A DNA stretch of 64,000 nucleotides. Origin: Parasporobacterium paucivorans DSM 15970 (lineage in GTDB: Bacteria > Bacillota > Clostridia > Lachnospirales > Lachnospiraceae). Below are positions 56,154 through 58,715 of this stretch, one piece after another. The notes under the pieces were generated by a model. It saw only the letters and a program-made list of their open reading frames with translations. It had not been told where the DNA came from and ran no database searches. Position numbers and translations under genes: made by a program. The stretch's first letter is position 1. Each line of letters opens with the position of its first letter. The stretch covers positions 1-64,000 of the forward strand of contig NZ_FQYT01000011.1 of the NCBI RefSeq assembly GCF_900141895.1, given 5' to 3'.

Positions 56154-56295
56154 AGGCACCATCCTTTATTTATTGAACAGGGGCAACCCCATCCTTTCTT
56201 CATGATATTCAGTATATGTAATATCTGGACTCTACAAATGTAAAATCCGTGTCAAATCTCTGGCTTCATTTGCCCCATCTGGACGCCTGGCAAAC

Positions 56296-56348
56296 AAAAA
56301 AGCACCCCTAAATGCCGTTGAATTGATTCAGCATTATTTAAGGGTGCT
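56296..56348 (-). terminator. Terminator of the GGGtGRT/NifU-like operon
   Basis: A long stem: AGCACCCTTAAAT pairs with ATTTAGGGGTGCT (one G-T pair), with an inner GCTGAAT-ATTCA-type helix, then T5 on the minus strand (56300-56296). Confidence 0.85.
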
Positions 56349-56373
56349 CTTCCATATCTTTGACATTAAAAGC

Positions 56374-57384
56374 CTAGAATTTACCTGCTTTTGAAGCTTC
56401 CTCAATCAGTACGGCCACTGCCACGGTAGCGCCAACCATCGGGTTATTTCCCATTCCAATCAGTCCCATCATTTCCACGTGAGCAGGAACCGATGACGAG
56501 CCGGCAAACTGGGCGTCTGAATGCATACGTCCCATGGTATCCGTCATTCCATAGGAAGCCGGACCTGCTGCCATGTTGTCCGGGTGCAGGGTACGTCCAG
56601 TTCCGCCACCGGAGGCAACGGAAAAGAATTTTTTTCCATTTGCCACGCACTCTTTTTTGTAGGTTCCCGCAACAGGATGCTGGAATCTGGTCGGGTTGGT
56701 GGAGTTTCCGGTAATGGATACATCCACACCCTCTTTGTGCATGATGGCCACGCCTTCAGTCACATCATTGGCTCCGTAACAGTTCACCTTTGCTCTCAGG
56801 CCGCTGGAATAGGCTTTCCGGAACACTTCGCTGACTTCCCCTGTTCCATAGTTCATGTCCGTTTCCACATAGGTAAACCCATTTATTCTGGAGATGATCT
56901 GCGCCGCATCCTTGCCGAGACCGTTCAGGATGACCCGGAGAGGCTTCTGTCTTACTTTGTTCGCTTTTTCTGCAATTCCGATAGCTCCTTCTGCTGCCGC
57001 AAAAGACTCATGTCCTGCCAGGAAACAGAAGCATTCCGTTTCCTCTTCCAAGAGCATTTTCCCTAAATTGCCATGTCCGATTCCAACTTTTCTCTGATCC
57101 GCAACGGATCCCGGAATACAGAATGCCTGAAGCCCTTCTCCCAGCACTGCGGCTGCATCGGAAGCTTTTCTGGCTCCCCTCTTTATTGCGATAGCCGCTC
57201 CCACCACGTAGGCCCAGCAGGCATCCTCAAAACAAATCGGCTGTACGGTCTTTATCTGCTCGTAAACGTCCAGACCCGCCTCTTTTGTGATTTTCTCTGC
57301 TTCTTCTATGGAAGCTATCCCATTTTCCAATAAAACGGAATTGATTTTATCTATTCTTCTTTCATATGATTCAAATAAAGCCAT
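56374..57384 (-). CDS. GGGtGRT protein
   Basis: 336 residues. Named for the motif GGGTGRT (259-265), followed by LHPDNMAAGPASYGMTDTMG. Soluble, mixed alpha/beta, with cysteines at 51, 56, 89, 118, 120, 202 and 246. This family is known only by its motif; no reaction is established. It sits 15 bp after the NifU-like scaffold gene, a pairing I recall from other Clostridia, so a role tied to Fe-S or metal-bound sulfur is plausible but unproved. AGGAAG precedes the start. Confidence 0.9.
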   Translation of the reverse strand: MALFESYERRIDKINSVLLENGIASIEEAEKITKEAGLDVYEQIKTVQPICFEDACWAYVVGAAIAIKRGARKASDAAAVLGEGLQAFCIPGSVADQRKVGIGHGNLGKMLLEEETECFCFLAGHESFAAAEGAIGIAEKANKVRQKPLRVILNGLGKDAAQIISRINGFTYVETDMNYGTGEVSEVFRKAYSSGLRAKVNCYGANDVTEGVAIMHKEGVDVSITGNSTNPTRFQHPVAGTYKKECVANGKKFFSVASGGGTGRTLHPDNMAAGPASYGMTDTMGRMHSDAQFAGSSSVPAHVEMMGLIGMGNNPMVGATVAVAVLIEEASKAGKF

Positions 57385-57399
57385 TTTTCTTCCTCCCTG

Positions 57400-58092
57400 C
57401 TACTCATGCCTTGGATCAATGATTCTCACGGCATCCGCGACTCTTCCGTATTCGCCTTTTGCCTTTTCCCATGCTGTGTTTGGATCATCACCTTTTTTGA
57501 TGAAATCCGTCATTTTGCCAAGACCGACATACTGATATCCGATTATCTCATCCTCCTCATTCAGTGCAAGGCCGGTGATATATCCTTCCGCCATCTCCAG
57601 GTATCGCGGCCCCTTTTTCAGGGTTCCGTACAATGTCCCCACCTGGGAACGGAGGCCTTTTCCGAGATCTTCAAGCCCTGCTCCGATAGGCAGTCCTCCT
57701 TCGGAGAAGGCCGACTGTGTTCTGCCGTACGCAATCTGTAAAAAGAGCTCTCTCATGGCGGTATTGATTGCATCGCAGACCAAGTCTGTATTCAGGGCCT
57801 CAAGCAGAGTCCTTCCCGGGAGGATCTCAGACGCCATGGCTGCTGAATGGGTCATCCCGGAACATCCCAATGTCTCTATAAGTGCTTCCTGGATAATTCC
57901 ATCTTTAACATTCAAAGTAAGCTTGCACGCTCCCTGCTGTGGCGCGCACCAGCCTACTCCGTGGGTCAATCCGGATACATCACTTATCTCTTTAACTTTA
58001 GTCCATTTGCCTTCCTGAGGAACAGGTGCGGCGCCATGGTTAACGCCCTGGGCAACAGGGCACATCATCTCAATTTCATGTGAATAAATCAT
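57400..58092 (-). CDS. NifU/IscU-like Fe-S scaffold protein
   Basis: 230 residues from the second of two adjacent ATGs (58095 and 58092), with AAAGGGG seven bases before it. NifU N-terminal-like domain: candidate cluster cysteines C49 and C56 (GWCAPQQGACKL), C77 (LGCSGMTH) and C106 (DLVCDA). The usual IscU spacing is altered and the protein is longer, with an extra C-terminal domain of about 100 residues (GLALNEEDEIIGYQYVGLG). First gene of a two-gene operon with GGGtGRT. No cysteine desulfurase is nearby. Confidence 0.85.
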   Translation of the reverse strand: MIYSHEIEMMCPVAQGVNHGAAPVPQEGKWTKVKEISDVSGLTHGVGWCAPQQGACKLTLNVKDGIIQEALIETLGCSGMTHSAAMASEILPGRTLLEALNTDLVCDAINTAMRELFLQIAYGRTQSAFSEGGLPIGAGLEDLGKGLRSQVGTLYGTLKKGPRYLEMAEGYITGLALNEEDEIIGYQYVGLGKMTDFIKKGDDPNTAWEKAKGEYGRVADAVRIIDPRHE

Positions 58093-58219
58093 CATTATTC
58101 CCCTTTCAAAAATCCAAAACATAGATGTTGTTATTTTCTCACATTTTTTTCCATTCGTCCATACCCTACTTAAAAAACGTTAATACTCCTTCCCGGTGCC
58201 GGATATCTCCCCCCGAAGG

Positions 58220-58249
58220 TGGACAACTTCACCGACAGGGTGTTATAAT
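58220..58249 (+). promoter_or_regulatory. dut promoter
   Basis: TGGACA (58220-58225), 18-bp spacer, TATAAT (58244-58249), 31 bp before the ATG. Confidence 0.65.
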
Positions 58250-58280
58250 CAGTAGAACAAACTTCCAAGGAGATGATTTT

Positions 58281-58715
58281 ATGAAAGATATAAAAATTCG
58301 CTATTTCAATGACCAGATTGAACGGCTTCGTTATATTGATGGAAAATCAGACTGGATCGACCTGCGCTGCGCTGAAACGATTGAGCTGAAAGCCGGTGAT
58401 TTCAAGCTTATTCCTCTGGGCGTCGCCATCGCCCTTCCGGATGGATACGAGGCACATATCGTACCCAGAAGCTCTACTTTCAAGAACTTCGGCATCCTCC
58501 AGACAAATTCAATGGGGGTGGTCGACGCTTCCTACTGCGGAACCAATGACCAGTGGATGATGCCTGCATACGCCATAAGGGATACCCGCGTCGAATTAAA
58601 CGACCGGATCTGCCAGTTCCGCATTGCGAAAAATCAGCCTCGGATAAATTTTATGGAATGCGATTCCCTGACAGATGCAGACAGGGGCGGTTTTGGATCG
58701 ACCGGCATAAAATAA
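58281..58715 (+). CDS. dut: dUTP diphosphatase
   Basis: 144 residues from ATG 58281 (MKDIKIRYFND), with AAGGAGA before it; an open frame runs further back but through the promoter. Trimeric dUTPase motifs: DLRCAE, PRSSTFKNFGI, GVVDASYCGTNDQW, RICQFRI and RGGFGSTG at the end. It hydrolyses dUTP to dUMP, which keeps uracil out of DNA. Alone in its unit, ahead of rpsT. Confidence 0.95.
   Translation: MKDIKIRYFNDQIERLRYIDGKSDWIDLRCAETIELKAGDFKLIPLGVAIALPDGYEAHIVPRSSTFKNFGILQTNSMGVVDASYCGTNDQWMMPAYAIRDTRVELNDRICQFRIAKNQPRINFMECDSLTDADRGGFGSTGIK

What the first reader, a model, noticed from the sequence alone, without database searches (positions are those of the whole stretch)
56374..58092. GGGtGRT/NifU-like pair: conserved two-gene system without a known job
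A scaffold-like protein with altered IscU cysteine spacing (C49, C56, C77, C106) and an extra C-terminal domain is followed 15 bp later by a protein known only for its GGGTGRT motif and rich in cysteines. They share one terminator. No cysteine desulfurase or transporter is nearby. The pair may build or store a metal-sulfur unit for an unknown enzyme. This is the best candidate in the window for an undescribed system.
Basis: partly seen in the sequence, partly recalled or inferred. Interest (0 to 1): 0.7.

Follow-up and report, generated by a model that had tools for sequence, protein, structure and literature searches.

The report
Iron-responsive NifU-like/GGGtGRT gene pair
Two neighbouring bacterial genes that occur together, and that two studied anaerobes use more when iron is plentiful, probably make one iron-sulfur protein unit whose job is still unknown.

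Summary
The pair is real and its two genes travel together: PF14057 (GGGtGRT) and the NifU-like gene occur in the same 19 of 299 phylum genomes, as 20 adjacent pairs. In 250 family genomes 197 hold both, 47 neither, 3 and 3 only one; four of those six discordances are genes cut by contig ends. Published data tie the pair to iron: both genes fall 11-12.8-fold without iron in Bacteroides thetaiotaomicron (PMC10434189), and both proteins are higher with iron in Clostridium pasteurianum, GGGtGRT 7.1-fold (PMC5395762). Residues 38-130 of the NifU-like protein have an IscU fold, but family cut-offs, the IscU aspartate and the LPPVK motif are not met and the first cysteine is displaced. C49, C77 and C106 are invariant (103 of 103), C56 is not (101); GGGtGRT has no invariant cysteine. 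Best reading: a cluster-bearing NifU-like subunit working with an enzyme-like GGGtGRT protein. Cluster binding, complex formation and the reaction are inferred; storage and client-specific assembly remain open.

The parts
57400..58092 (-). NifU-like gene, 230 aa; residues 38-130 IscU-like fold, C-terminal extension from about residue 140 without known family
   Evidence: ORF; PF01592 18.7 bits, under cut-off 22; fold match to IscU Z 8.7, rmsd 3.5, 88 residues
56374..57384 (-). GGGtGRT gene (PF14057), 336 aa
   Evidence: ORF; Pfam E 1.4e-188
57946..57948 (-). codon of invariant C49 of the NifU-like protein
   Evidence: 103 of 103 sequences
57862..57864 (-). codon of invariant C77, equivalent to the second IscU cysteine
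   Evidence: 103 of 103; profile alignment with IscU/NifU proteins of the same genome
57775..57777 (-). codon of invariant C106, just before a predicted helix as the third IscU cysteine is (the latter recalled)
   Evidence: 103 of 103; predicted helix 107-122
57925..57927 (-). codon of C56, nearly but not fully invariant
   Evidence: 101 of 103; exceptions L022 and L035
56491..56613 (-). GGGtGRT residues 258-298 with the glycine-rich motif: densest in invariant positions, and placed with low confidence by AlphaFold2
   Evidence: 29 of 41 positions invariant against 89 of 295 elsewhere; pLDDT under 50
58133..58161 (-). promoter-like site: TGGACG, 17-nt spacer, extended -10 TGAGAAAAT
   Evidence: TGNGAAAATA upstream of 31 of 92 loci, mostly related ones, against a mean of 0.4 in shuffles; the simple scan did not list it
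58100..58106 (-). ribosome-binding site AAAGGGG of the NifU-like gene
   Evidence: sequence read; GAAAGGAG in 59 of 92 loci
57389..57397 (-). ribosome-binding site of GGGtGRT within the 15-bp gap
   Evidence: sequence read
56294..56355 (-). terminator-like hairpin and U run after GGGtGRT
   Evidence: RNA fold -31.6 kcal/mol for the 94-nt stretch, z -3.92

Best explanation
The two genes encode one obligate iron-sulfur unit that the cell makes when iron is plentiful. The NifU-like protein has an IscU-type domain that holds an Fe-S cluster on C49, C77 and C106. It has lost the aspartate and the chaperone motif that go with IscU's role as a transient scaffold, and its first cysteine is displaced, so it keeps the cluster as a working subunit or dedicated donor. 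GGGtGRT is an alpha/beta (Rossmann-like) protein with invariant polar residues on loops after several strands, including the GGGTGRT loop, as in an enzyme active site. It works only with the cluster partner, and both are shut down together when iron is short, as other costly Fe-S enzymes are. Shown here: pairing, adjacency, predicted IscU-type fold, residue conservation. Shown by others: iron response. Inferred: cluster binding, physical complex, catalysis.
For: Pairing: the same 19 of 299 phylum genomes, 20 adjacent pairs; 197 both / 47 neither / 3 / 3 in 250 family genomes; 84 of 85 further loci paired, the exception at a contig edge. In five sampled families with mixed presence (f18, f28, f35, f56, f76) the two genes come and go together. 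Iron: B. thetaiotaomicron BT0173-74 down 11-12.8-fold without iron; C. pasteurianum GGGtGRT 7.1-fold and NifU-related protein 2.4- and 3.7-fold (two spots) higher with iron in exponential phase, in one table with PFOR, hydrogenase and rubrerythrin, which rise too. IscU fold and profile match 94.1% over 49 columns. Three invariant Cys. In GGGtGRT 43 polar residues are invariant and no cysteine is; invariant positions are densest in 258-298, which AlphaFold2 leaves at pLDDT under 50, as can happen where a ligand or partner is missing. The own genome has three NifU_N proteins elsewhere, two beside desulfurase-type genes on C35 and C46, so general scaffolds are already there.
Against: No fold match of GGGtGRT stands out (best Z 7.9; no Foldseek E under 0.001), so 'enzyme' rests on conservation. 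Invariants are not significantly enriched after strands overall (26 of 56 against 92 of 280, p 0.065). The low confidence of 258-298 may also come from the shallow alignment (50 sequences, 79-90% identical). No metal or complex has been measured. Iron response alone does not tell an Fe-S enzyme from a store. Codon adaptation is only moderately high (ranks 5 and 9 of 50 window ORFs, below the ribosomal reference genes).
Confidence: 0.45

Rival explanations
1. Iron-sulfur storage or buffering: the pair forms an assembly that takes up iron and sulfide when iron is plentiful and releases them later, an anaerobic counterpart of ferritin, working like IssA but unrelated to it.
For: Made with iron, low without; GGGtGRT has the largest rise with iron in table 2 for C. 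pasteurianum (7.1; next hydrogenase-1, 5.1). Strong ferritin matches (E 1e-20 or better) in 3 of 19 pair-bearing against 103 of 280 other genomes, one-sided p 0.049, not corrected for kinship. GGGtGRT called highly expressed in vivo in chicken gut anaerobes (PMC11204068, passages).
Against: The ferritin difference is borderline, and the window's own genome has a ferritin (4.6e-36). Conservation looks like that of an active site rather than of a coat (inference). No NifX-type Pfam match.
Confidence: 0.25
2. Dedicated assembly or insertion system: the NifU-like protein builds or carries a cluster, and GGGtGRT inserts it into one client enzyme of anaerobic metabolism.
For: IscU-type fold; in Collinsella the pair lies about 1.9 kb from sufB-sufD-sufS-sufU. 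[FeFe]-hydrogenase in 19 of 19 pair-bearing against 218 of 280 other genomes, p 0.010, not corrected for kinship.
Against: No neighbour recurs widely enough to be the client; no desulfurase-type gene on the window's contig. The control genome Bacteroides ihuae has PF14057 but no PF02906, so [FeFe]-hydrogenase is not an obligatory client. The expression reported would be high for a maturase (inference).
Confidence: 0.2
3. An ordinary IscU/NifU scaffold that happens to sit beside an unrelated conserved gene.
For: Database names such as 'nitrogen-fixing protein NifU' and 'iron-sulfur cluster assembly scaffold protein'; IscU fold.
Against: Complete pairing in the 299-genome sample; below the cut-offs of all five NifU/IscU-type models matched; Asp and LPPVK not met; the genome has three NifU_N proteins elsewhere.
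Confidence: 0.03

Closest known systems
PF14057 (GGGtGRT protein)
   Same: Full-length member, E 1.4e-188.
   Different: Nothing; but no function, solved structure or partner of the family turned up in the searches made here.
IscU / NifU N-terminal domain (PF01592, TIGR01999, TIGR03419)
   Same: Residues 38-130 share the fold (Z 8.7); C77 matches the second cysteine; C106 precedes a helix like the third.
   Different: Scores under every cut-off; the first cysteine falls at Q52 or Q53 and the aspartate at G54 or a gap, with C49 three or four residues earlier; no LPPVK; extra C-terminal part; constant partner is GGGtGRT, not a desulfurase.
IssA, thioferrate storage protein (PMC5524996, abstract and outline seen)
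   Same: A possible working parallel only: anaerobic iron-sulfur storage.
   Different: IssA belongs to a family with NifB and NifX (abstract); no such Pfam match here.
SufU
   Same: Same fold class (6jzv_A, B. subtilis SufU, Z 7.4, rmsd 2.2, 80 residues).
   Different: Under the TIGR01994 cut-off (15.2 against 92.5); no desulfurase-type gene on the window's contig.

Membership tests
PF14057 GGGtGRT | profile score over the curated cut-off | tested here: met
   626.2 bits against 27
PF14057 GGGtGRT | GGGTGRT motif | tested here: met
   residues 259-265 of the window protein
IscU/NifU_N scaffold | profile score over the curated cut-off | tested here: not met
   PF01592 18.7 against 22; TIGR01999 21.4 against 192.4; TIGR03419 26.1 against 187.9
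IscU/NifU_N scaffold | IscU fold | tested here: met
   residues 38-130, Z 8.7, rmsd 3.5, 88 residues aligned; whole model pLDDT 69.4
IscU/NifU_N scaffold | first cysteine (C37 of E. coli IscU, numbering recalled) | tested here: inconclusive
   the aligned position is Q53 or Q52 (read two columns outwards without a gap); invariant C49 lies 3-4 residues earlier and could take its place
IscU/NifU_N scaffold | aspartate two residues after the first cysteine (D39, recalled) | tested here: not met
   G54 in the profile alignment, a gap in the HMMER alignment
IscU/NifU_N scaffold | second cysteine | tested here: met
   C77, 103 of 103
IscU/NifU_N scaffold | third cysteine | tested here: inconclusive
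   C106 is invariant and precedes helix 107-122, but the profile alignment ends at 102
IscU/NifU_N scaffold | LPPVK chaperone motif (recalled) | tested here: not met
   absent by eye before C106 in the 17 rows of A2 and in the A4 consensus; the own genome's three NifU_N proteins have GLPxxK there
IscU/NifU_N scaffold | binds a labile Fe-S cluster | not testable with these tools
   needs purified protein
IssA-type storage | NifB/NifX-type domain | tested here: not met
   no such Pfam match up to E 1 in either protein
IssA-type storage | thioferrate particles | not testable with these tools
   needs electron microscopy and X-ray absorption
Rossmann-type enzyme | clear structural relative of GGGtGRT | tested here: inconclusive
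   best Z 7.9, rmsd 2.9, 103 residues, tied with many unrelated entries

The most novel reading that the evidence does not exclude
A new kind of iron-sulfur enzyme, or iron-sulfur store, common among gut and rumen anaerobes, in which an IscU-type domain has become a permanent cluster-holding subunit of an unknown alpha/beta protein.
Probability: 0.4. Interest if true: 0.85.

Novelty: new variant of a known kind. Interest (0 to 1): 0.6.

Why it matters
Both genes are in 197 of 250 sampled genomes (one per genus) of the window's family, and the pair also turns up in records of Bacteroidota, Actinomycetota and Vibrio. One or both proteins are named among changed or highly expressed proteins in chicken, rumen and human gut studies. 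An iron-regulated, obligate two-protein unit with no known job is a gap in how gut anaerobes handle iron and sulfur. It can be tested directly in Bacteroides thetaiotaomicron and Clostridium pasteurianum, where the iron response is already in print.

Tried and rejected
Obligatory [FeFe]-hydrogenase maturation: the control genome Bacteroides ihuae has PF14057 and no PF02906. A constant third gene: within 7.5 kb in 95 loci (23 of them the diverse set), outside one family (f35, six loci) nothing is in more than 4 diverse loci, and those are an ABC-transporter-like and a chemoreceptor-like cluster at varying places; a FluC/DUF190-like pair follows in three loci of three families (names recalled). 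GGGtGRT as a cysteine-ligated metal protein: no invariant Cys in 107 sequences. A relative of GGGtGRT with a solved structure: no sequence match in the PDB better than E 0.035, no Foldseek hit under 0.001, VIA Z under 8 with many tied folds. A known RNA element: only two Rfam matches, both far under their gathering scores. A regulator site: only ribosome-binding sites and an extended -10 came out, and the shuffles there do not correct for kinship. The ferritin contrast is borderline; the handles with E 1e-20 or better were counted by hand from the table. In PMC10434189 the word GGGtGRT occurs once, for B. thetaiotaomicron; I did not check whether that paper's P. gingivalis and P. intermedia have the pair. 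The NifU gene of the C. difficile iron study stands next to iscR and iscS2 (PMC6311696, passages) and is not this one. PMC4916542 (passage) lists the C. pasteurianum NifU-related protein 2.1-fold lower in one substrate comparison. PMC9942572 (passage) flags GGGtGRT as a putative virulence factor by a prediction program; I give that no weight. PMC6043501 and PMC7671984 (passages) name a NifU protein that cannot be tied to this pair. Rows dropped: loci L120-L174 were left out as second copies of places already held, and with them two new viral contigs (L147/L154 and L150); after a length filter (200 and 300 letters) and merging of identical rows, 106 NifU-like places gave 103 rows and 111 GGGtGRT places gave 107.

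Full report
What is there. On the minus strand, a 230-aa NifU-like gene (57400-58092) is followed after 15 bp by a 336-aa GGGtGRT gene (56374-57384). GGGtGRT matches PF14057 over its whole length (E 1.4e-188). The NifU-like protein scores under the cut-offs of NifU_N (18.7 against 22), NifU_clost, iscU, SUF_scaf_2 and NifU_proper. A hairpin with a U run lies after the second gene (z -3.92), and an extended -10 site with a -35-like hexamer lies before the first. That motif, TGNGAAAATA, is upstream of 31 of 92 loci against 0.4 in shuffles that do not correct for kinship. None of the genome's 14 PF00266 matches lies on contig C17, while IscS-IscU neighbours lie on C35 and C46.

Pairing. In 299 genomes of the phylum, PF14057 and the NifU-like profile (E 1e-20 or better) both occur in 19, the same 19, at 20 places each, all 20 adjacent with the NifU-like gene first. 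In 250 genomes of the family each occurs in 200: 197 hold both, 3 (G335, G396, G531) only PF14057, 3 (G317, G347, G472) only the NifU-like gene, 47 neither (counted from the lists). In the last three the gene runs off a contig end, and G335 has a NifU-like start cut by a contig end; G396 and G531 remain unexplained. Of 85 further loci (L035-L119), 84 are paired, some cut by contig ends, and the last has only 46 bases upstream. The pair also occurs in Vibrio, Persicobacter, Parabacteroides, Bacteroides and Collinsella records of the plasmid collection; some of these may be mislabelled chromosome pieces. No third gene recurs widely (see Tried and rejected).

Sequence features. C49, C77 and C106 are invariant in 103 of 103 NifU-like sequences, C56 in 101; the exceptions are L022 and the Vibrio protein. 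GGGtGRT has 43 invariant polar residues and no invariant cysteine in 107 sequences. Its residues 258-298 are invariant at 29 of 41 positions against 89 of 295 elsewhere (p 9e-7). Lowest pairwise identity among 102 paired loci is 55% for GGGtGRT and 59% for the NifU-like protein. Most of these sequences come from one family, so invariance is weaker evidence than the row counts suggest. In a more diverse set, all four cysteines are invariant in 17 NifU-like rows (L022 and Vibrio not among them) and no cysteine is invariant in 19 GGGtGRT rows.

Structure. AlphaFold2 gives the NifU-like protein pLDDT 69.4. Residues 38-130 match IscU structures (Z 8.7, rmsd 3.5, 88 residues; Foldseek E 6.8e-5). Profile comparison with three NifU_N proteins of the same genome and one Collinsella SufU gives 94.1% over residues 54-102 and places C77 on the second IscU cysteine. 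The first IscU cysteine falls at Q52 or Q53 and the aspartate at G54 or a gap, depending on the alignment. GGGtGRT is modelled at pLDDT 78.8 with a helical first third and an alpha/beta remainder, without a distinctive relative. The stretch 258-298 is under pLDDT 50, which may reflect a missing ligand or partner, or the shallow alignment. Loops after four strands (118-122, 150-156, 222-225, 254-257) hold 24 of the 26 invariant residues found after strands, but the enrichment over all strands is not significant (p 0.065).

What is in print. Nine papers of the held library contain the word GGGtGRT, and I read passages of all nine. In these, and in the listings of further searches, I saw no function given to the pair. 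PMC10434189 (passages, and parts 2-3 of 6 of section 7) lists BT0173-74 as 11-12.8-fold down without iron; beyond the table its text mentions the NifU gene once, under the nitrogen cycle. PMC5395762 (passages and section 11) lists GGGtGRT 7.1-fold (exponential) and 2.2-fold (stationary) higher with iron, and the NifU-related protein 2.4- and 3.7-fold (two spots, exponential). PMC13041051 (passage) lists GGGtGRT and a NifU N-terminal domain protein as lower in colorectal cancer patients. PMC12014591 (passage) lists both, with consecutive locus tags, as 'Down' in a comparison that I did not read. PMC11204068 and PMC7035244 (passages) report GGGtGRT and NifU in chicken and rumen anaerobes. That these proteins are this pair follows from the names and, where given, neighbouring locus tags; their sequences were not compared here.

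Reading. An iron-replete, obligate pair with an IscU-type domain that has lost scaffold features, and a partner with enzyme-like conservation, is best read as one Fe-S unit: a cluster-bearing subunit plus an alpha/beta enzyme (0.45). Storage (0.25) and client-specific assembly (0.2) fit much of the same evidence. Two co-occurrence contrasts were tried. Strong ferritin matches occur in 3 of 19 pair-bearing against 103 of 280 other genomes (one-sided p 0.049). [FeFe]-hydrogenase occurs in 19 of 19 against 218 of 280 (one-sided p 0.010). Neither is corrected for kinship, and Bacteroides ihuae shows that the hydrogenase is not obligatory. Codon adaptation ranks the two genes 5th and 9th of 50 window ORFs of 150 aa or more, above the median but below the ribosomal reference genes, at most weak support for high expression.

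Noticed in passing
L162, L164, L167 (about 450 bp and 860 bp after the pair): Genes that look like a fluoride channel (CrcB/FluC) and a DUF190 protein follow the pair on the same strand in three families; names recalled, not searched.
   Followed up: no
L160, L165, L166, L170, L172, L173: In one family (f35) the pair follows genes that look like a glycolytic operon (gap, pgk, tpi, phosphoglycerate mutase); likely family synteny; names recalled.
   Followed up: no
L037:5800-5991: In Parabacteroides a 63-aa ORF annotated as hypothetical lies between the two genes, overlapping the first.
   Followed up: no
L017 and L023 (genome G207): One genome has two copies of the pair; the second GGGtGRT (L023) is 63% identical to the window's and differs at several otherwise conserved sites.
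   Followed up: partly
L024-L034, L145-L155 and hits H11-H16: Contigs filed as viral carry the gene or pieces of it, mostly at contig ends; probably host DNA in phage records.
   Followed up: no
window 58125-58715: A divergent gene that looks like a dUTPase or dCTP deaminase (recalled) starts close upstream, with a promoter-like site at 58220-58249.
   Followed up: no
L038:1-3361: In Collinsella a SUF operon (sufB, sufD, sufS, sufU) lies about 1.9 kb upstream of the pair, with a transposase between.
   Followed up: no
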